Shown piece by piece: positions 13,559 through 22,973 of a stretch of 64,000 nt of DNA. Numbering within the stretch: position 1 is the stretch's first letter; each line of letters opens with the position of its first letter. The DNA is from Xanthomonas cucurbitae (GTDB taxonomy: Bacteria; Pseudomonadota; Gammaproteobacteria; Xanthomonadales; Xanthomonadaceae), in NCBI RefSeq assembly GCF_002939885.1, contig NZ_MDED01000001.1, positions 1 to 64,000 of the forward strand, in the 5' to 3' direction. Both the position numbers and the translations under genes were made by a program. The notes beneath the pieces were generated by a model. The model made no database searches and was not told the origin of the DNA. It saw only the letters and a list, made by a program, of their open reading frames with translations.

Positions 13559-16282
13559 CTACAGGCTGGCCCGCAAGGTCAGGCCATACCGACGATCGTT
13601 GATGACGAAATCACGGTAGCGCGACTCGTTGCCCAGGTAGCTTTCGCGACGGGTATCGAGCAGGTTCACGCCATCCAGCGAAATCAACCACACCTCATTG
13701 AGGTTGAAACGCAGCGAGGCATCCAGCTGGCCGAAGCCCTTGTTGTAGACCGGCAGGTTGCCGGTGCCGTTGCCTGCGGTGGTCACCAGCCAGTCGCTGC
13801 GCCAGTTGTAGGCCACACGGCCCTGGAAGCGCGCCGTCTCATAGCTGAGGATCGCGTTGTAGCTGTTCTTGGACAGGCCTTCCAGCGGCACCGTCAACGA
13901 CTGGCCGTTGGTGTCGGTGGCGGTGGGGCTGGGCGCCTCGCTGTCGACGTAGGTGTAGTTGGTCTGCAGGCCGAAGCCGCTCAGCCAGCCCGGCAGGAAG
14001 TCGAAGAACTGCGTGTAGCCCAGTTCCGCACCACGGATCCTGCCCGAATCGCCGTTGACTGGACGGGTGATCTGCCACACCTGGCCGTCGTACACCTCGT
14101 TGAAGACAGCGTTGGCGATGAAGCCTTCCACCTTCTTGTAGAACACCGTGCCATACATCATCGAGCCCTGGCCGAAATACCACTCCAGCGCGGTATCGAA
14201 CTGATCGGCCTTCACTGCCTCCAGGTCCGGGTTGCCTGCCGCACCGGTACGCGTGGCGGTGCCGGTGTTGGAAGTGCCGGTGCTCAGGGTCAGGTTGGGA
14301 TTGAGGCGGTCGAAAGTGGGACGCGAAATACCACGCGAGGCCGCAAAGCGCCACTGCAACTGGTCGCTCAACATCCAGCGTAGATTCAAGCTCGGCAACA
14401 CATCGGTATAGGTCTGCTGCGCATCCACCGGAATCAGACCACCGCCTTCGGCGTCGGTAGCGGTACGCACGCCCTGCGAGGCCACTTCGGTCCGCACCAC
14501 GCGCATGCCGATATTGCCGTCAAACGGAATGTCGCCATCCACGCCAAAGCGCAGCACGCCGTAGGCCGCGTAGGTCTTCTCGTTCTGCGTGTTGATGTTG
14601 TTGGGCGCAAACACCAGCGGCGTGCCACCGAAAGTGGCAAGCGTCTGCTCGTAGTTGGCCACGGCCGCGTCCGATGCCGTCAGCGTCGGACCGAAGGTGC
14701 TGCTCTTGCCGCGGAAGAAATCGGTGATCGGGTTGGTCACCACACCCACGCTGGGGAATTGCGAGAACGGCGTGCCGGCACATCCGTTGATGCACATGAA
14801 GCGGAACACGCCACCCTTGGTTTCGGCATCGCGGTCTGTGTAGCGCACACCAGCCTTGAAGCTGCGCACGAAATCGCTGTCGAACGCCAGGTCCATGTCC
14901 GAGCGCCACGCGAACTCGGTGCCGGTGTTGTCGTCCTTATTGTCCAGGTGCCAGCGCCAGCCGTTGTAGTTGTTCTGGTTGGCCAGGAAACCTTCGGCAC
15001 CACTGGCGTCGGTCACCGACAACGTGGGCAGATCGCCACGGAAATCCACGTTGAAGAACGGTGTGTTGTTCAAGCCGGTGGCCACGATATAGCGCGTGCC
15101 GGTGGTGGTCGCATCGACGTACTGGAAGTCGGTGCTCAAGGTCAGTTTTTCATTGACCGTCCACTTGCCGCCCAGCGAGTAGTCGGTAGTCACCGAATGC
15201 CGCTCGGTCAGGCTGGTGTTGGAGTCGGCCGGCACGTTCTGGAAGGTACCGTTGACGAACTCGTTGCGGCTGTTGACCTGGATGCCGGGGGTCCCCTGCA
15301 TCGGGTTGGCACCGGTCAGCGCGAAGAACGAATAGTCGTGCCAGCTGAAGTCGTAGTCCGACCGCAGCACCTGCGTATACACCTCGACCGCATCGTTGGG
15401 CCGCCACTGCATCGCAAATGCACCGGTCTTGCGCTCGCGCTCACCCACGGTGGTGTTGATACCGGCGCCATGCGGCACCGAGATTTCCCGGCCTTCGTAG
15501 CCCGGCAGATCGGTTTGGGTGTACCACGGCTCGATGGAAATGGTGTCCTGGCGGAACGGGCTCTTCTGCTGCGAGTAGTTCACCAGGATGCCGATCTCGC
15601 CGATCCCGGTCTGCCAGCGGTCGCTGAACAGGCCAGAGAACGCCGGCTTGCCCTCATCGGCCAGGTCGTAATAGTTGTACTGCACGCTGCCGGCGATCTT
15701 GCGGCCTTCGTAATCGAACGGCAGGCGCGTGCGCAGGTCCACGGTGCCGCCCAGGCCACCTTCGATCATGTCGGCAGACGGGTTTTTGTAGACGTTGACG
15801 CCGCCAAGCAACTCGGCGGACACGTCTTCGAAGCTCAGGCCACGGCCGTCGTTGGCGGTGAAGATGTCGCGGCCATTGAGCTCGGTACGCACCTGGGTCA
15901 GGCCGCGGATGGCGATGGAGCTGCCTTCGCCGTAGTTGCGCGAAATCTGGATGCCGGAGATGCGCTGCAGCGCTTCGGCGACGTTGTTGTCGGGCAGCTT
16001 GCCGATGTCTTCGGCGACGATGGAATCGACGATCTGCTCGGCGTTCTGCTTGACCAGCTGCGCCTTGGTGACGCTGCTGCGGGTTCCGGTGACCTGCACC
16101 GTGTCCAGCTGCTGGGTGGTCGCTTCCGACGCCGGGGCGGCCGTGGTGGTCGCATCCTGCGCATAGGCCTGCGCGCTCAGCAGCGTGGCCACACTGATGG
16201 CCATCACCGAGCGGCGGAAATCACGGATCGAACGCTGACCCACAGCCCGGACTGCCGGAATGTGGCGATGTTGCACTGACAT
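13559..16282 (-). CDS. TonB-dependent outer-membrane receptor (xyloglucan locus, first copy)
   Basis: Predicted outer-membrane active transporter for xyloglucan oligosaccharides, powered by TonB. The 907-residue product has a signal peptide ending about residue 41 (AQAYAQD), a TonB-box-like stretch LDTVQVTGTRSS, a plug domain (residues about 65-190, IVAEDIGKLPDNNVAEAL and IAIRGLTQVRTELNGRDIF) and a 22-strand barrel to the C terminus. There is no N-terminal signalling (STN) domain, and no sigma/anti-sigma pair nearby. The strong GGGAGG ribosome site is 5 nt before ATG 16282. It is preceded by a 333-bp gap with its own promoter-like signals, so it may be transcribed separately from the second receptor. 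Confidence 0.93.
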   Translation of the reverse strand: MSVQHRHIPAVRAVGQRSIRDFRRSVMAISVATLLSAQAYAQDATTTAAPASEATTQQLDTVQVTGTRSSVTKAQLVKQNAEQIVDSIVAEDIGKLPDNNVAEALQRISGIQISRNYGEGSSIAIRGLTQVRTELNGRDIFTANDGRGLSFEDVSAELLGGVNVYKNPSADMIEGGLGGTVDLRTRLPFDYEGRKIAGSVQYNYYDLADEGKPAFSGLFSDRWQTGIGEIGILVNYSQQKSPFRQDTISIEPWYTQTDLPGYEGREISVPHGAGINTTVGERERKTGAFAMQWRPNDAVEVYTQVLRSDYDFSWHDYSFFALTGANPMQGTPGIQVNSRNEFVNGTFQNVPADSNTSLTERHSVTTDYSLGGKWTVNEKLTLSTDFQYVDATTTGTRYIVATGLNNTPFFNVDFRGDLPTLSVTDASGAEGFLANQNNYNGWRWHLDNKDDNTGTEFAWRSDMDLAFDSDFVRSFKAGVRYTDRDAETKGGVFRFMCINGCAGTPFSQFPSVGVVTNPITDFFRGKSSTFGPTLTASDAAVANYEQTLATFGGTPLVFAPNNINTQNEKTYAAYGVLRFGVDGDIPFDGNIGMRVVRTEVASQGVRTATDAEGGGLIPVDAQQTYTDVLPSLNLRWMLSDQLQWRFAASRGISRPTFDRLNPNLTLSTGTSNTGTATRTGAAGNPDLEAVKADQFDTALEWYFGQGSMMYGTVFYKKVEGFIANAVFNEVYDGQVWQITRPVNGDSGRIRGAELGYTQFFDFLPGWLSGFGLQTNYTYVDSEAPSPTATDTNGQSLTVPLEGLSKNSYNAILSYETARFQGRVAYNWRSDWLVTTAGNGTGNLPVYNKGFGQLDASLRFNLNEVWLISLDGVNLLDTRRESYLGNESRYRDFVINDRRYGLTLRASL

Positions 16283-16399
16283 GGTGCTCCCTCCCAGGAC
16301 GCATGTACTGCTGTTTTAGCAGGCCGGTGCGCGAACGCCCGGCCCGTCGTCATTGCTGTCGGAGCCGCCCCAGGCCTAGAGCATGAGTGCACCGACGCG

Positions 16400-16423
16400 A
16401 GGTAAACCTTGCAAGGCCTACCT
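16400..16423. promoter_or_regulatory. 24-bp palindrome, candidate repressor operator upstream of receptor 1
   Basis: The inverted repeat has arms AGGTA and TACCT and a perfect 10-bp core CCTTGCAAGG; only two positions per arm do not pair. It lies just downstream of the transcription start predicted from the -10-like TATGCT at 16439-16444. A dyad at that position is typical of a repressor operator, for example of the LacI/GalR family. The binding protein is unknown. Confidence 0.45.
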
Positions 16424-16465
16424 GGCGCTAGCGGCGGGAGCATAGGGCGCGGCTGTCATGCCACA

Positions 16466-16479
16466 CCAATGAAATATTC
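16466..16479 (-). promoter_or_regulatory. shared motif site 1 (upstream of receptor 1)
   Basis: In gene orientation it reads GAATATTTCATTGG, matching the consensus GAAWWTTTCATTKG formed by three sites in this window. It is 187 bp upstream of the receptor start, with 21 nt between it and a -10-like TATGCT. That places it just above a -35 region, as expected for an activator site. Confidence 0.5.
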
Positions 16480-16615
16480 CTGCGGAGGTATTCGTTAAAG
16501 ATATATCAATAACGCGAAACCCGATTCCCCAGGCATTGCCTGCCAACGAAACCGGGTTTCACGGCGCGCGCCAGCATCTGCGAAGGCGCGCACACTGCAA
16601 CAGTGACCGACTGCA

Positions 16616-19549
16616 CTACCAATTCATGCGCAATACCAACGAGTAGCGGCGGTCGTTGACGAACGAGGAACGGGTATACAACCGGGTATCCACTTCGCCG
16701 CCCTCGTACGAGGTGGGGCCCATCAGCACCTTGGTCACGGTGTTGGTCAGGTTGTTGGCCTGTACGCCGAGCTGCAGATGCGCGTTGAAGCGGTAGAAGA
16801 ACGAGCCATCGAGCTGACCGTAGTCGTCTGCCCAGGTCGGCAGCCGGGTGGCCGCGTCGCTGGTGGTCAACAGGTAGCGCGAGCGCCAGTTATAGGCCAG
16901 GCGCAACGACAACGGACCCTTCTCGTAGATGCCGGCCAGGTTGTAGCTGCGCCGCGACAGACCTTCCAGCGGCAGCTCGACGCCGTCCACGGTGGTGCGG
17001 GTGTAGGGATCGATGGCGGTGTTGGCGCCGCCCTTGCTGTCGACAAAAGTGAAGTTGGCATTGACGCCGAACCCGCTCATCCAGCCCGGCAGTTCGTCGA
17101 AGAACTGCGTATAGCCCACTTCGGCGCCACGGATGATGCCTTCGTCGGTGTTGTAGGGCCGGGTCACCAGCCACTGCCGGTTGTCGTAGGTCTCGCTGCG
17201 GGTCTGGGTGGAGAAGTAATCCTTCACCTTCTTGTAGAACAACGTGGCGTACAGCATGTCGCTGGTGTCGAAGTACCACTCCAGTGCGGTATCGAACTGG
17301 TTGGCGGTCATCGGCTTGAGGTTGGGATTACCCGCCGTGCCGACGAAGTTGGTGGCGTTGCCGGCATCGTCGGTCTCCACGTTCAGCAGCACATAGGGCT
17401 GCAACTGGGTGTAGTCCGGACGCGCCATCGCCTTGGAGGCGGCAATACGCCACTGCAAGGTGTCGGTGAAGCGCAAGCGCATGTTCAGGCTCGGCAGCAC
17501 GTTGGTATAGCTACCCTGCGCGTTGTTGTCGAAGTACTGGCCGGTATACCGCGCCCGCAACTCCGGCGAGACGTTCAGACCGGACAGATCCTGGAACTGC
17601 CCAAACCCTTCGGCCTGGGTCTTGGTCTGCACGATGCGCACGCCCACATTGCCGTCCACCGGCACGCCCCAGGCCTCGTCGTTGCCAAAGTACAGCGCCG
17701 CGTAGGCGGCCTGGGTACGCTCGAACTGACGATTGGTGTCCTGCGGCTGGTAGGTGTCCGGTGCCCAGCCCCACCCACGCAGTGCGACGATCTGCTGCTG
17801 CAGCAGCTCCGATGCACGCCCGTAGTTCCTAACCAACCCGCTGTTGGGCACCACCAGGGTGGTCGGCACATTCACCCCACCGCGGAAGAAGTTGGAGAAG
17901 GTGAACTGCGAGGACTCGTCGGGCAGGAACTGCGACATGGTGGCCAGGCCGTTGGGACTGCCGGGAATGGCCGCCCAGTTGTCCGACAGCACGCCCCAGT
18001 TGTAGCCGGAGTTCTTGTTGATCTGGTTGCGGTCGGTGGCGCGCATGCCGAAGCGCGCAAAGCGCAGCCAGCTGCTGTCCTGGAAGGTGTATTCCAGGTC
18101 AACGCGGGTGGACAGCTGGCGCCCGCGGTTGTTGCCCAGGTGATCCATCGCTGCGGCCCAGAAATAATTGGACGGGTCCTGGGTGAAGCCCTGGTTGGCG
18201 ATCTGCACGCTCGGATACTTGCCCGACACGTCATAGGTCAGCCCGGGCAGATAGGTCGCGCTGAACACGGTGAAGTCCAGCTGGTCGTTTTCCGACTGCA
18301 CCAGTTGCACGTCGCCCTTGATCTGCAGATTGTCGTTGAAGTAATGGCTGAACCCCACCGACAGGTCCGAAGTGGTGGTCTGCTGATCCGAATAGCGGTT
18401 ATCGGTGTTGAAGCGCACGCCGTCGCCGGTCAGCTGGCCGCGCCAGGAGTTGGACACCGGCGAACCGCGCTGGAACACGCCATTCTGGTCGTACTGGAAG
18501 GTGGTGCCCGGCGCCGGGCTGATGCTGTTGTTGCTGTCGTTGAAGAACGCCGCGCGCTCCTGCCAGTTCATGTCGTACTGCGAACGCAGGTACTGCGCGT
18601 AGATCTCGGTCTGGTCGCTGGGCCGCCACTGGAAGGCAGCGGCAATGCCGTCGCGCTTGCGTTCGAAATCCAGCTGGCGCCAGTTGACCCCGCCCGGCAC
18701 GAACACTTCGCTGCGGCCGCTGCCCACCAGCACCGCCGCGTCGGTGCGGCGCACGTATGGCTCGACCTGGATGCCATCCGAGCGCGTCGCCAGTTCGGAA
18801 TGGGCGATATCGATCATGAAGCCCATTTCGCCGATACCGGTCTGCCAGCGATCGCTGAACAGGAACGACGCCGAAGGCTTGTACTTCTTGCTCATATCGC
18901 CGTAGTTGACGTCGACGTTGCCGCCGACGATGCGGCCCGGGTTGTCAAACGGCATGCGCGTGCGCAGGTTGACCGTGCCGCCCAGGCCGCCTTCGATGAT
19001 CTGCGCGGAAGGGTTCTTGTACACGTCCACGCCGGCCATCAGCTCGGCCGGCACGTCTTCAAAGCTCAGGCCGCGGCCGCTGGCGGCACTGAAGATGTCG
19101 CGCCCGTTGAGCTCGCCGCGCACCTGGGTCAGGCCGCGGATCATCACGCCACTGCCTTCGGCCGAGAAGTGATCCGGGTCGCTGCGCGCGGCGAAGTGAT
19201 CGATGGTCACGCCGCTGACGCGCTGCAGGGTTTCGGTGACGCTGCGGTCGGGCAGCGCGCCGATGTCTTCGGCACTGACCGAATCCACGATCTGCGCCGC
19301 ATCGCGCTTGATGACCTGCGACTTGATCAAGCTGGCGCGCACGCCACGCACTTCCACCGTGTCCAGGTCCACTGCTGTGCTGCCGGCCTTGCCCGAGGCG
19401 GCGTCCGGCGACGACGGCGCCTGTTGCGCATAGACCGGCGCGGCGAGCAGTAAACCGATGCTGACGGCCATGGCCGAGTGGCGCAAACGTGGGGTACGAC
19501 GCGCACGCACGCCCGTACCTGCCGAGGCATGGCTTGAAAACTTGTACAT
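16616..19549 (-). CDS. TonB-dependent outer-membrane receptor (xyloglucan locus, second copy)
   Basis: Predicted outer-membrane transporter, 977 residues. It has a signal peptide (SIGLLLAAPVYAQQ), a TonB-box-like LDTVEVRGVRASL, a plug domain (residues about 75-200, VMIRGLTQVRGELNGRDIF) and a barrel ending in a C-terminal aromatic residue (VLRMNW), as expected for outer-membrane assembly. It is clearly paralogous to the neighbouring receptor over plug and barrel but longer by about 70 residues, mostly in barrel loops, which suggests a different oligosaccharide preference. The start at ATG 19549 has GGGAGGG upstream. It is the first gene of the locus, 259 bp after the regulator's stop. Confidence 0.93.
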   Translation of the reverse strand: MYKFSSHASAGTGVRARRTPRLRHSAMAVSIGLLLAAPVYAQQAPSSPDAASGKAGSTAVDLDTVEVRGVRASLIKSQVIKRDAAQIVDSVSAEDIGALPDRSVTETLQRVSGVTIDHFAARSDPDHFSAEGSGVMIRGLTQVRGELNGRDIFSAASGRGLSFEDVPAELMAGVDVYKNPSAQIIEGGLGGTVNLRTRMPFDNPGRIVGGNVDVNYGDMSKKYKPSASFLFSDRWQTGIGEMGFMIDIAHSELATRSDGIQVEPYVRRTDAAVLVGSGRSEVFVPGGVNWRQLDFERKRDGIAAAFQWRPSDQTEIYAQYLRSQYDMNWQERAAFFNDSNNSISPAPGTTFQYDQNGVFQRGSPVSNSWRGQLTGDGVRFNTDNRYSDQQTTTSDLSVGFSHYFNDNLQIKGDVQLVQSENDQLDFTVFSATYLPGLTYDVSGKYPSVQIANQGFTQDPSNYFWAAAMDHLGNNRGRQLSTRVDLEYTFQDSSWLRFARFGMRATDRNQINKNSGYNWGVLSDNWAAIPGSPNGLATMSQFLPDESSQFTFSNFFRGGVNVPTTLVVPNSGLVRNYGRASELLQQQIVALRGWGWAPDTYQPQDTNRQFERTQAAYAALYFGNDEAWGVPVDGNVGVRIVQTKTQAEGFGQFQDLSGLNVSPELRARYTGQYFDNNAQGSYTNVLPSLNMRLRFTDTLQWRIAASKAMARPDYTQLQPYVLLNVETDDAGNATNFVGTAGNPNLKPMTANQFDTALEWYFDTSDMLYATLFYKKVKDYFSTQTRSETYDNRQWLVTRPYNTDEGIIRGAEVGYTQFFDELPGWMSGFGVNANFTFVDSKGGANTAIDPYTRTTVDGVELPLEGLSRRSYNLAGIYEKGPLSLRLAYNWRSRYLLTTSDAATRLPTWADDYGQLDGSFFYRFNAHLQLGVQANNLTNTVTKVLMGPTSYEGGEVDTRLYTRSSFVNDRRYSLVLRMNW

Positions 19550-19724
19550 CTGAATCCCTCCCAGGACGCGAGACGACTGAAGACTGGTTGTCGCGGCGCA
19601 ACACGCCCCGCGTGATCGTGCGGAGACGGACGCTGGCGCCGGCTCCACGTTGTTGCTACATGGCGGCTAGACCGCCGATCACTTGCCCGACTTCACGTAC
19701 GCTTCAGCATGGGATCTGGCGCAC

Positions 19725-19731
19725 AGATATA
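19725..19731 (-). promoter_or_regulatory. possible -10 box for receptor 2
   Basis: TATATCT on the minus strand, 20 nt downstream of the shared motif at 19752-19765. The receptor 1 promoter has TATGCT 21 nt from its motif, and both are preceded by a CGCGCC stretch. This gives a predicted leader of about 170 nt. It is inferred from spacing only. Confidence 0.4.
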
Positions 19732-19751
19732 GGCGCGTGCGCCACCGCCAA

Positions 19752-19765
19752 CCAATGAAAATTTC
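19752..19765 (-). promoter_or_regulatory. shared motif site 2 (upstream of receptor 2)
   Basis: In gene orientation it reads GAAATTTTCATTGG, differing from site 1 at only two positions. It is 202 bp upstream of the receptor start and four bases from a perfect palindrome at 19769-19782. Being AT-rich in strongly GC-rich DNA and shared by three promoters of linked function, it is a good candidate for the site of the adjacent LysR-type regulator. Confidence 0.5.
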
Positions 19766-19768
19766 ACA

Positions 19769-19782
19769 GGGTGATATCACCC
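19769..19782. promoter_or_regulatory. perfect 14-bp palindrome GGGTGATATCACCC
   Basis: A fully symmetric 14-bp dyad lies in the gap between the regulator's 3' end and the receptor 2 gene, just upstream of the shared motif. It could be a second regulator site or part of the same operator. I do not see it at the other two motif sites. Confidence 0.4.
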
Positions 19783-19808
19783 CACAGAATACCAATGGAA
19801 GAGCTTGC

Positions 19809-20780
19809 TCAGCCAAGGGATTCCGGCCCGCGCAGACCTGGGTATAACCGGCGCGCCGTGGTGCGCAGCGCCTGCAGGATGCGTTCGGCGCCCGGAGGCA
19901 GCACGTAATCGCGCCGCCGGATGATGCCGAACGACTCCATCCGCACCCCCAGTTCAATCGGCAGCACCGTCAGCAGCTTGGCCTGGATCAGTGGCGCCAC
20001 CGACTCCACCGGCAAGGCGGTCAGCATGTCGGTGCCGCGCAGCAGGGTCGAGGTGACCGGCAGGGACGAGGTTTCGATGGCATTGGTCGGCGTCTGCACG
20101 CCGTGCTCCATGAACATCGAGTCCAGCCGCGCGCGCAGCACGCTGTCGGCCGGCGGCAGGATCCAGCCATGTCGCACCAGGTCCGCATGCTGCAGGCCGG
20201 CGCGGCTGGCCAGCGGGTGGCCGGCGCGGGCGATCACCGAATGCGGCTCGTCGGCCAGCGGCTCGAACTCCAGCTCGCCCACCCCTTCCGGCCCCAGGAT
20301 GCGGCCAATCACGATATCGAGCTGGCCATCCAGCAACTTGGCCACCAGCGGACGGCTGTAGTCCATCTCCACCCGCACCAGGATGTCCGGAAACTCGCGT
20401 TTGACCTCGGCAATGGCCTGCGGCACCAGGTTGGTGCCCGGGTTGACCACGGTGCCGATCGAGGCCTGCCCCATCCGCCCGGCACGCAGGGCGGCAATTT
20501 CTTCCTGCGCGCGGCCGATCTCCGACATGGCCGCGCGGGCGCGCCGGATCAGCACATGCCCATACCAGGTCGGCTCGACACCGCGCGCGTGCCGTTCGAA
20601 TAGTTTCACCCCCAGCATGTCTTCCATTTCGGCCAGCAGCTTGGAAGCGGCCGGCTGGGTCATGCTGGCGGCCTCGGCCGCACGCAGCACCGAGCGTTGT
20701 TCATGCAGATGCAGCAGCAGCAACAGTTGGCGTGTCTTGAGCCGGGCGGCGTTGAACCAGGGAGTCGCGGAATTTGCCAT
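19809..20780 (-). CDS. LysR-type transcriptional regulator (GbpR-like)
   Basis: DNA-binding regulator of 323 residues: winged helix-turn-helix at about residues 15-75 (VLRAAEAASMTQPAASKLL) and a LysR substrate-binding domain from about residue 105. It resembles the GbpR group, LysR proteins tied to galactose-binding proteins and galactose use, and it sits between the xyloglucan receptors and a divergent galactonate operon. It probably responds to galactose or a galactonate-pathway intermediate. The 415-bp divergent gap to dgoA and a motif at 20827-20840 support autoregulation and control of dgo. Ligand and target genes are inferred from context. Confidence 0.85.
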   Translation of the reverse strand: MANSATPWFNAARLKTRQLLLLLHLHEQRSVLRAAEAASMTQPAASKLLAEMEDMLGVKLFERHARGVEPTWYGHVLIRRARAAMSEIGRAQEEIAALRAGRMGQASIGTVVNPGTNLVPQAIAEVKREFPDILVRVEMDYSRPLVAKLLDGQLDIVIGRILGPEGVGELEFEPLADEPHSVIARAGHPLASRAGLQHADLVRHGWILPPADSVLRARLDSMFMEHGVQTPTNAIETSSLPVTSTLLRGTDMLTALPVESVAPLIQAKLLTVLPIELGVRMESFGIIRRRDYVLPPGAERILQALRTTARRLYPGLRGPESLG

Positions 20781-21195
20781 GGGATGCGATTACGGCCGTG
20801 TATTCATCGAGGGAATAGAATATGCCGAAAATTTCATTTGCCGCACATATCTCACCGCGCGAGGCTAGCGCTCGCCGCAGCAGGAGCCCCCTACCTCCCG
20901 GGCGCGGCCAGAACAGACGTGACCCGCCTCGACCAAGCGGCAACACGCATGCCATGACCGTGGAGGTGGACGACGATGACCGCAACTTGCCGGCCACTTG
21001 CACGCCGTAGCAGCCGGCATGCGCTTGCCGCGCCTGGTCGTGTGCGCGTTGGCGCAGCGCCTCCCCGCATTGCGTTTTTGACACCGGATTGCGCATTGGC
21101 GGCAATCTTCTGCCCGCGCAGTCGCGCACGCTCCTCAAACGTTGTCGGCCGCTCGGCCGCCAACGGCCGCTTTCCGCTCTACCGCGAGTAACCGC
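20781..21195. other. divergent promoter region between LysR gene and dgoA
   Basis: No gene seen in 415 bp. The regulator-proximal part is AT-rich (20810-20850) and holds the shared motif. An octamer GCTAGCGC at 20864-20871 also occurs in gene orientation in the receptor 1 promoter (16425-16432) and is part of an imperfect dyad (20859-20875). The remainder is GC-rich and featureless to my reading. Confidence 0.5.
20827..20840 (+). promoter_or_regulatory. shared motif site 3 (LysR/dgo divergent region)
   Basis: Reads GAAAATTTCATTTG on the plus strand, fitting GAAWWTTTCATTKG. It is 46 bp upstream of the LysR start and about 355 bp upstream of dgoA. Its orientation toward the dgo genes equals that of the other two sites toward the receptor genes. 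Confidence 0.5.
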
Positions 21196-21828
21196 ATGAC
21201 CTCAGACACCACCGCCAGCCTGTTCGCCCTGCCGCTGATCGCCATCCTGCGTGGCATCACCCCGGAAGAGACGCCCGACCATGTCGGCGCGCTGATCGAC
21301 GCCGGCTTCGATGCGATCGAGATCCCGCTCAATTCGCCGCGCTGGGAGCAGAGCATTGCACTGGCCCAGCAGACCTATGGCGAGCGCGCCTGGATCGGTG
21401 CCGGCACCGTGCTGCGCAACGACGACGTGGACACCCTGGCCGAGATCGGTGCGCGCTTCATCGTCACCCCGAATACGCGCCCCAGCCTGATCCGCCATGC
21501 AGTGGCGCGCGGCCTGACCGTGGTGGCCGGCTTTGCCACCGCCAGCGAGGCATTCGACGCCATCGATGCCGGCGCAACGATCCTGAAACTGTTCCCGGCG
21601 GCGACTTATGGCGCGGCGCATGTGCGCGCGCTGCGCTCGGTGCTGCCCCCCCACATCCCGGTCTACGTGGTCGGCGGCGTCAGCCCGCAGACCCTGGCCG
21701 GTTTCATCGCCCAGGGCGCCGCTGGCGCCGGTATCGGCGGCGAACTGTACAAACCCGGCCAATCCCTCGAAACAACCCAGACGCATGCACGCGCGTTCGT
21801 GCAGGCCTACCAGGAACTGCAAGGATGA
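21196..21828 (+). CDS. dgoA: 2-dehydro-3-deoxy-6-phosphogalactonate aldolase
   Basis: Splits 2-keto-3-deoxy-6-phosphogalactonate into pyruvate and glyceraldehyde 3-phosphate, the last step of the De Ley-Doudoroff route. The 210-residue class I aldolase has the KDPG-family blocks: catalytic Glu in [20 protein letters not shown], and Schiff-base Lys in [19 protein letters not shown] precedes the phosphate loop. The S/N pattern after EIPL and the neighbouring dgoD and dgoK favour the galacto rather than gluco enzyme. It is the first gene of a tightly packed operon; its stop overlaps the dgoD start. The ribosome site is weak. Confidence 0.92.
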
Positions 21829-22973
21829 AGATCACCCGCCTCACCACCTACCACGCCGCACCGCGCTGGCTGTTCCTCAAGGTCGAGACCGACGAAGGCA
21901 TCACCGGTTGGGGCGAGCCGGTCATCGAAGGCCGCGCGCGCAGCGTGGAAGCGGCCGTGCACGAACTGGCCGGCTACATCGTCGGCAAGGACCCGGCGCG
22001 TATCAACGACCTGTGGCAGACCATGTACCGCGCCGGTTTCTATCGCGGCGGTGCCATCCTGATGAGCGCCATCGCCGGCATCGACCAGGCGCTGTGGGAC
22101 ATCAAGGGCAAGGCGCTGGGCGTGCCGGTGTACGAGCTGCTGGGCGGGCTGGTACGCGATCGCATGAAGACCTACCGCTGGGTCGGCGGCGACCGCCCCG
22201 GGGCCATCATCCAGCAGATCACCGACTACCGTGCGTTGGGCTTTGACACCTTCAAGTTCAACGGCACCGAGGAAATGAAGCTGATCGACAGCGCGCGCGC
22301 GGTCGATGCGGCGGTGGTCAAGGTGGCCGAGATCCGCGAAACCTTCGGCAACGCCATCGATTTCGGCATCGACTTCCATGGCCGCGTCGGCGCGCCGATG
22401 GCCAAGGCACTGCTGCGCGAGCTCGAACCGTTCAAGCCCTTGTTCGTCGAAGAACCGGTGCTGGCCGAACAAGCCGAGTACTACCCGCGCCTGGCCGCAA
22501 GCACCTCGATTCCGTTGGCGGCCGGCGAGCGCATGTTCTCGCGCTTCGAGTTCAAGAACGTGCTGTGCGCCGGTGGCATCGGCATGGTGCAGCCGGATCT
22601 CTCGCATGCTGGCGGCATCACCGAATGCGTCAAGATCGCCGCGATGGCCGAAGCCTACGATGTCGGCTTCGCCCCGCACTGCCCGCTCGGCCCGATTGCC
22701 TTGGCCGCCTGCCTGCACGTGGACTTCGTCTCGCACAACGCGGTGCTGCAGGAACAGAGCATCGGCATCCACTACAACGAAGGCGCCGACCTGCTCGATT
22801 ACGTCCTCAACAAAGACGATTTTCAGTGTATCGATGGCAGCATCGCCGCGTTGCCCAAGCCCGGGCTGGGTGTGGAGATCGACGAAGCCATGCTCAAGCG
22901 CGCCAACGAAACTCCGCCGGACTGGCGTAACCCGGTGTGGCGCCACAGCGATGGCAGTATCGCCGAATGGTGA
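21825..22973 (+). CDS. dgoD: D-galactonate dehydratase
   Basis: Dehydrates D-galactonate to 2-keto-3-deoxy-D-galactonate. The 382-residue member of the mandelate-racemase branch of the enolase superfamily shows the metal-ligand positions [20 protein letters not shown] and AAGERMFSR, and the catalytic His in [14 protein letters not shown]. The length equals that of E. coli DgoD (382). It begins with a 4-bp ATGA overlap with dgoA, implying translational coupling. Assignment as galactonate dehydratase rather than another sugar-acid dehydratase rests on strong motif similarity plus the operon. Confidence 0.94.

What the first reader, a model, noticed from the sequence alone, without database searches (positions are those of the whole stretch)
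16425..20872. Shared 14-bp motif ties xyloglucan receptors to the galactonate operon
GAAWWTTTCATTKG occurs in three promoter gaps and, by eye, nowhere else in the window: before receptor 1 (16466-16479), before receptor 2 (19752-19765) and in the LysR/dgo gap (20827-20840). All three have the same orientation to the receptor or dgo genes. At both receptors a -10-like box (TATGCT 16439-16444, TATATC 19725-19731) follows after 20-21 nt, preceded by CGCGCC. The octamer GCTAGCGC also recurs in two of them. The adjacent GbpR-like LysR is the natural candidate to bind, giving one regulon for polymer uptake and galactose catabolism.
Basis: partly seen in the sequence, partly recalled or inferred. Interest (0 to 1): 0.78.

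Follow-up and report, generated by a model that had tools for sequence, protein, structure and literature searches.

The report
Galactose regulator's sites at xyloglucan receptors
Three promoters in this Xanthomonas genome, two for outer-membrane receptors that import pieces of the plant polymer xyloglucan and one for galactose breakdown, carry the same conserved two-part docking site, very probably for the neighbouring galactose regulator GamR, so that one protein would switch uptake and digestion on together.

Summary
GAAWWTTTCATTKG occurs exactly three times in the window and in the whole 4.42 Mb genome, always in these gaps (0.016 expected). In each gap a dyad TATTC-N7-GAATA (TAT-N11-ATA, a LysR-type box) lies exactly 9 nt upstream and a -10-like hexamer 20-21 nt downstream, which puts the dyad near -64 and the motif near -46 to -33, the usual layout of a LysR activator operator. 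The composite is in 34 of 35 genus genomes, only at these gaps (96 sites, control 0), and in 71 of 297 family genomes. It tracks the LysR gene: both 70, gene only 2, site only 1, neither 224; 16 of 17 genomes with dgoD but no full LysR match lack it. In other genera it precedes quite different TonB receptors. By gene order the LysR is GamR, a published galactose regulator; its control of the xyloglucan receptors was not found in the searches made. Binding is untested. The hrpG-hrpX gap, a reported GamR target, lacks the composite.

The parts
20801..20817 (+). dgo operator, LysR-type dyad TATTC-N7-GAATA (TAT-N11-ATA), centre about -64
   Evidence: 10 of 10 arm positions; invariant in 33 genus sites
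20827..20840 (+). dgo operator, motif GAAAATTTCATTTG, about -46 to -33
   Evidence: exact match; 14 of 14 columns invariant in 33 genus sites
20861..20866 (+). weak -10-like hexamer GAGGCT of the dgo promoter (prediction)
   Evidence: position only, 20 nt after the motif
19775..19791 (-). receptor 2 operator, dyad (TATTC-N7-TGATA)
   Evidence: 8 of 10 arm positions
19752..19765 (-). receptor 2 operator, motif GAAATTTTCATTGG
   Evidence: exact match
19726..19731 (-). -10-like TATATC of the receptor 2 promoter (prediction)
   Evidence: 20 nt after the motif
16489..16505 (-). receptor 1 operator, dyad (TATAT-N7-GAATA)
   Evidence: 8 of 10 arm positions
16466..16479 (-). receptor 1 operator, motif GAATATTTCATTGG
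   Evidence: exact match
16439..16444 (-). -10-like TATGCT of the receptor 1 promoter (prediction)
   Evidence: 21 nt after the motif
19809..20780 (-). LysR-type regulator, GamR by gene order
   Evidence: PF00126 HTH_1 and PF03466 LysR_substrate; XAC1767 = GamR in PMC8245568
16616..19549 (-). TonB-dependent receptor 2 (XAC1768 by gene order); start taken as the ATG after GGGAGGG
   Evidence: TIGR01782 above cut-off; leader read
13559..16282 (-). TonB-dependent receptor 1 (XAC1769 by gene order)
   Evidence: TIGR01782 above cut-off
21196..21828 (+). 2-dehydro-3-deoxy-6-phosphogalactonate aldolase
   Evidence: NF006600 above cut-off
21825..22973 (+). galactonate dehydratase (dgoD)
   Evidence: NF010624 above cut-off

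Best explanation
The three sites are operators of the adjacent LysR-type activator GamR. GamR anchors at the TAT-N11-ATA dyad centred near -64 and, with an inducer from galactose catabolism bound, contacts GAAWWTTTCATTKG at about -46 to -33, next to or over the -35 region, to recruit RNA polymerase to a promoter whose -10 lies 20-21 nt on. At dgo the operator sits in the divergent gap, so it probably also controls gamR itself. At the two receptors the same operator puts uptake of xyloglucan pieces, and the enzyme genes behind receptor 1, under the same signal: galactose released from the imported polymer would induce both its own breakdown and more uptake. Shown here: the sites, their geometry, their conservation and their co-occurrence with gamR. 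Inferred: that GamR is the binder, the inducer, activation rather than repression, the start sites, and read-through into the enzyme genes.
For: Composite at orthologous gaps in 34 of 35 genus genomes, 96 of 96 sites there, control 0; 71 of 297 family genomes, 13 of 54 genera; dgo gap with 3 or fewer mismatches in 77 of 79 named loci with upstream sequence. Flanks 0.13-0.18 bits, dyad arms 1.35-1.84, motif 1.53-1.78. TAnnnT at 20-21 nt in 48 of 57 receptor-side sites against 1.5% in shuffles. Dyad centre -64/-65 and motif -46 to -33 from a predicted start match the LysR scheme in PMC8407307 passages. Co-occurrence with gamR 70/2/1/224; dgoD without full gamR: 16 of 17 lack it; G239 has gamR only in pieces and a drifted dgo operator. 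Three off-locus composites lie before a GH97 gene, a TonB receptor and an arabinofuranosidase-domain gene. Passages: XAC1767 is GamR, xyloglucan oligosaccharides induce XAC1768-XAC1777 (PMC8245568); two X. campestris receptors, XCC1749 and XCC1750, taken by gene number for the same pair, share inducers (PMC1790865).
Against: No binding or mutant data. The hrpG-hrpX gap, where GamR is reported to bind (PMC7831014 passage), lacks the composite in all 20 of 34 genomes examined (best score 9.0; 17-60 for training sites). Window receptor dyads match only 8 of 10 positions. Sites and gene share one locus, so their co-occurrence is partly trivial, and it is not corrected for ancestry; in the dgoD control 11 of the 17 dgoD genes are distant, 52-57% identical. 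6 of 55 loci gave no receptor-side site, and 2 of 72 genomes with gamR lack the composite at 3 mismatches. The RNA-seq passages do not show galactose alone inducing the receptors.
Confidence: 0.85

Rival explanations
1. The composite is the operator of another regulator (a second LysR or a regulator of another family) that serves the same genes; GamR acts elsewhere in the gap.
For: The composite is absent from the hrpG-hrpX gap reported as a GamR target. Many family genomes also carry a LysR paralogue about 40-45% identical.
Against: The site is lost where gamR is lost (16 of 17 dgoD genomes) although such genomes can keep the paralogue (G239); divergent placement next to gamR and LysR geometry.
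Confidence: 0.1
2. The three sites are copies made by duplication of one promoter, kept by recent common ancestry rather than by function.
For: The gaps lie within 4.4 kb and both receptor leaders share GCGTCCTGGGAGGGA before the start codon.
Against: Spacers and flanks have drifted while arms and motif are kept across 13 genera; in G239 the operator drifted where gamR is in pieces.
Confidence: 0.02
3. The motif is a Fur or CRP/Clp box, or part of a known RNA leader element.
For: AATGAAAAT resembles half of the published Xanthomonas Fur box (PMC1790865 passage).
Against: Best Fur match 9, 10 and 9 of 19, random 66-mers mean 8.4, maximum 12; best CRP match 6, 5 and 7 of 10, random mean 5.3, maximum 7. 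No Rfam family at gathering score in 16000-21300. In the passages read, that paper reports Fur boxes at 9 receptors and none at other receptors.
Confidence: 0.02

Closest known systems
GamR of Xanthomonas oryzae (Rashid et al. 2016; paper not held; seen only in citing passages)
   Same: LysR-type regulator of galactose metabolism; XAC1767, next to XAC1768/XAC1769, is equated with it, and the window has the same order.
   Different: Reported targets in the passages are galactose metabolism and hrpG/hrpX; here the xyloglucan receptors are added and the hrpG-hrpX gap lacks the composite. Sequence identity to the X. oryzae protein was not tested.
LysR-type activator operators in general (PMC8407307 passages; PMC11739112 passages)
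   Same: T-N11-A recognition site near -65 and an activation site reaching the -35 region, 50-60 bp in all.
   Different: Here the activation half is as conserved as the recognition half (1.78 and 1.84 bits at dgo; 1.53 and 1.35 at receptors).
XyGUL, the xyloglucan utilization locus of X. citri (PMC8245568, sections 6 and 11 read)
   Same: Two TonB receptors followed by hydrolase and esterase genes, in the published order; induced by xyloglucan oligosaccharides.
   Different: No regulator of the locus itself is named in the sections and passages read; here GamR is proposed.
Xylose-responsive receptor loci of Xanthomonas (PMC1790865 and PMC7831014 passages)
   Same: A shared motif in receptor and catabolic promoters ties uptake to breakdown.
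   Different: There a 20-bp palindrome, and a LacI-type repressor XylR; here a LysR-type operator.

Membership tests
LysR-type regulator (protein) | N-terminal LysR HTH and LysR substrate-binding domain | tested here: met
   PF00126 and PF03466 above cut-off
LysR-type operator | T-N11-A dyad | tested here: met
   TAT-N11-ATA, 10, 8 and 8 of 10 arm positions; conserved arms, drifting spacer
LysR-type operator | recognition site near -65 and activation site near -35 | tested here: inconclusive
   -64/-65 and -46 to -33, but from predicted, not mapped, start sites
LysR-type operator | bound by the regulator | not testable with these tools
   needs a footprint
GamR | gene order: between galactonate genes and the xyloglucan receptors | tested here: met
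   against PMC8245568
GamR | sequence match to the published protein | not tested
   the published sequence was not fetched
GamR | same site in the hrpG-hrpX gap | tested here: not met
   composite absent in 20 of 20 gaps fetched; a different invariant element is there. The published site was not available to me.
XyGUL | two TonB receptors, GH74, esterase and GH35 genes in a row | tested here: inconclusive
   receptors, SASA esterase and GH35/GH42 domains; the GH74 gene shows only BNR/sortilin repeats in Pfam and is named by position
Fur box | 9-1-9 palindrome; 15-17 of 19 in the published boxes shown | tested here: not met
   9-10 of 19
CRP/Clp box | TGTGA-N6-TCACA (recalled) | tested here: not met
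   5-7 of 10

The most novel reading that the evidence does not exclude
The 40-bp operator with its -10 is a movable promoter cassette. In at least 13 genera it has stayed with the gamR locus while the receptor genes behind it were exchanged for quite different TonB receptors and, at other places, for sugar-releasing enzyme genes, so that GamR is a family-wide switch for scavenging galactose-containing polymers. The invariant element in the hrpG-hrpX gap is a second, altered class of GamR site that ties this diet signal to the infection programme.
Probability: 0.3. Interest if true: 0.65.

Novelty: new member of a known kind. Interest (0 to 1): 0.52.

Why it matters
It offers an answer to which regulator controls the xyloglucan receptors of Xanthomonas, and ties a polymer-uptake system to the regulator of the sugar that the polymer releases. 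It gives a 40-bp pattern specific enough to read this regulon off genomes of the family (controls 0), and a clean prediction: receptor induction by galactose needs gamR. Because GamR is reported to act on hrpG and hrpX, it also sharpens the question how cell-wall sugars reach the infection programme.

Tried and rejected
Octamer GCTAGCGC as a shared element: rejected, not conserved. The 14-mer alone as a regulon finder: the 5 one-mismatch hits in the own genome and the 4 off-locus exact hits in the genus lack the dyad (5-9 of 10 arm positions wrong). Fur and CRP boxes and known RNA families: rejected. The first scan for receptor-side sites in the named loci was made on the wrong strand (the 'down' columns) and is void; one search repeats it on the right strand. 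hrpG-hrpX as confirmation of the composite: negative. The HTH_18 search in G027 and the ORF listing of its loci did not at first show a full hrpX frame; I searched G016 too and then used the G027 frame as query, which showed that the frame is broken there. No structure was predicted: it would not show which DNA is bound.

Full report
WHAT WAS CLAIMED AND CHECKED. Exact matches in the window are 16466-16479 (-), 19752-19765 (-) and 20827-20840 (+); no other site has fewer than 2 mismatches. The whole 4.42 Mb genome has the same 3 exact hits and 5 one-mismatch hits, with 1 hit for the reversed control pattern. Base composition predicts 0.016 exact hits per genome.

THE ELEMENT IS LARGER. I fetched 40 stretches from the genus genomes: 36 at the locus, from 34 genomes, and 4 off-locus. 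Lining them up showed a dyad TATTC-N7-GAATA exactly 9 nt upstream of the motif in all three gap classes, although the gaps are otherwise unlike. Written as TAT-N11-ATA it is the LysR box. In the window it matches 10 of 10 arm positions at dgo and 8 of 10 at each receptor. After the motif a -10-like hexamer follows at 20 nt (TATATC, receptor 2), 21 nt (TATGCT, receptor 1) and, weaker, 20 nt (GAGGCT, dgo). If transcription starts 7 nt after that hexamer, the dyad is centred at -64 (dgo, receptor 2) and -65 (receptor 1) and the motif spans -46 to -33 or -47 to -34. PMC8407307 (passages) gives the LysR scheme: a T-N11-A site near -65 and an activation site over the -35 and -10 regions.

CONSERVATION IN THE GENUS. 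The exact 14-mer has 96 hits in 34 of 35 genomes, 92 at these gaps and 4 elsewhere; the reversed control has 1. The composite with up to 3 mismatches has 96 sites in 34 of 35 genomes: 33 at dgo, 30 at receptor 2, 33 at receptor 1, none elsewhere, control 0. The genome without any, G028, is 81% complete. Receptor 2 sites are missing in G018, G019, G028, G029 and G033, the dgo site in G008 and G028, the receptor 1 site in G009 and G028 (G009 keeps the exact 14-mer there). Within the genus the motif is invariant in 14, 10 and 13 of 14 columns and the upstream flank in 1, 3 and 1 of 30 (dgo, receptor 2, receptor 1; 33, 30 and 34 sequences with at most one motif mismatch).

CONSERVATION IN THE FAMILY. 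Of 297 genomes, 73 had a LysR match at 1e-60; one of these (G239) was only a 43% paralogue, leaving 72, one of them partial (G310). The composite was in 71 of 297, control 0. Both 70, LysR only 2 (G215 has 4 mismatches; G231 lacks it at dgo and has 4 mismatches at the receptor), composite only 1, neither 224 (Fisher p about 1e-64, not corrected for ancestry). Because sites and gene share a locus, a better control is dgoD: 85 of 297 genomes have it at 1e-130. Of 68 with gamR, 66 have the composite; of 17 without a full gamR match, 1 has it. Of those 17 dgoD genes 11 are distant (52-57% identical), 6 close (74-97%). The exception, G008, keeps receptor-side sites; its gamR is cut at a contig end by a stretch that by eye reads like a transposase (no domain search), and the gap before its dgoD is not held in full (the contig begins 209 nt before it). 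G239 looks like a natural loss: gamR matches only in pieces in different frames, and the dgo operator has 7 mismatches and a shifted spacer, where three sister genomes have 0-1 mismatches; sequencing error cannot be excluded for the frames.

In 80 titled loci 79 had upstream sequence: composite mismatches 0 in 44, 1 in 24, 2 in 5, 3 in 4, 4 in 1 and 7 in 1, a Rhodanobacter. In 40 loci from other genera of the unnamed set 39 had a dgo-gap composite with up to 4 mismatches. For the 55 titled loci whose LysR is at most 90% identical (a few of them still titled Xanthomonas), 53 dgo sites with up to 4 mismatches and 57 receptor-side sites with up to 5 were profiled: information content 0.18 and 0.13 bits in the flank, 1.84 and 1.35 in the dyad arms, 0.46 and 0.21 in the dyad spacer, 1.78 and 1.53 in the motif. 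Receptor-side sites were picked by similarity, so those figures are biased upward; 6 of 55 loci gave none. A TAnnnT box at 20-21 nt, which was not used for picking, is present in 48 of 57 against 1.5% in shuffles.

RECEPTORS CHANGE, OPERATOR STAYS. 54 of 57 receptor-side sites lie before a TonB receptor match; 18 of these receptors are at least 60% identical to a window receptor, 7 are 45-59%, 29 are under 45%. Three composites away from the locus lie before a GH97 gene, a TonB receptor and a gene with an arabinofuranosidase C-terminal domain.

WHO BINDS. The LysR gene lies between dgo and receptor 2 and has the two LysR domains. PMC8245568 (passages; sections 6 and 11 read) has XAC1767 beside receptors XAC1768 and XAC1769 and equates it with GamR of X. 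oryzae; I identify the window gene with it by gene order, not by sequence. The GamR paper is not held. From memory, its abstract reports binding upstream of the adjacent galactose operon with galactose-dependent induction; I did not read it. A citing passage reports binding in the hrpG-hrpX region.

TEST AGAINST THE OTHER REPORTED TARGET. I took the hrpG-hrpX side from 20 of the 34 genus genomes with an hrpX match. None has the composite: the best matrix scores are 9.0 and 2.2, above the window background (maximum -2.7 per 1.8 kb) but below training sites (17-60) and window sites (36-59). Instead AATGGTATGTACCATT (first T or A at base 2), then 9-10 nt, then an AAAGTTTCA-type block lies there in 20 of 20, and once per genome in 34 of 35 with at most 1 mismatch. 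It has the geometry of the composite with other arms (T-N10-A, a spacing PMC8407307 also lists for LysR boxes). It may be a second kind of GamR site or belong to another regulator. This is the main result against a simple reading.

MECHANISM. GamR anchors at the dyad; with inducer it contacts the motif next to polymerase. Published induction fits but does not prove it: xyloglucan oligosaccharides raise XAC1768-XAC1777; XCC1749 and XCC1750, which I take by gene number for the same receptor pair (not checked by sequence), are both induced by polygalacturonate and by arabinose (PMC1790865 passages); XAC1768 and XAC1769 change in the same direction in a quorum-sensing table (PMC6337780 passage). 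The inducer (galactose, galactonate or 2-keto-3-deoxygalactonate) is inference.

NOVELTY. GamR, the xyloglucan locus and LysR operators are known. That the xyloglucan receptors belong to the GamR regulon, and the composite operator, were not found in searches for GamR with Xanthomonas, XyGUL with regulator, the locus tags, and GamR with TonB-dependent and galactose; the library holds open papers only, and I read passages, not all texts.

Noticed in passing
G000:C3:159037-159071 (-), outside the window; L288-L307: A single-copy, nearly invariant element AATGGTATGTACCATT-N10-AAAGTTTCA lies in the hrpG-hrpX gap, in 34 of 35 genus genomes with at most 1 mismatch, with the dyad-N9-GAAA layout of the GamR composite but different arms.
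   Followed up: partly
L245 (G008:C294:1-9000): gamR is cut by a transposase-like stretch, the receptor 2 frame is broken, and the receptor 1 promoter has lost its TATGCT, while the operators are still present.
   Followed up: partly
L337 (G239): gamR matches only as pieces in different frames and the dgo operator has drifted, a natural case of joint decay.
   Followed up: partly
window 16288-16302 and 19555-19569 (-): Both receptor leaders carry the 15-mer GCGTCCTGGGAGGGA just before the start codon, and it occurs nowhere else in the window.
   Followed up: no
L095 (G026:C1:100400-110900): About 4.5 kb more than usual lie between the dgo and receptor 2 operators, with a second, partial gamR match (residues 269-321) beside the receptor 2 operator.
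   Followed up: no
L098 (G029:C92) and L105 (G014:C65): Exact 14-mers without the dyad occur in the same sequence context in two genomes, away from the locus; probably unrelated.
   Followed up: no
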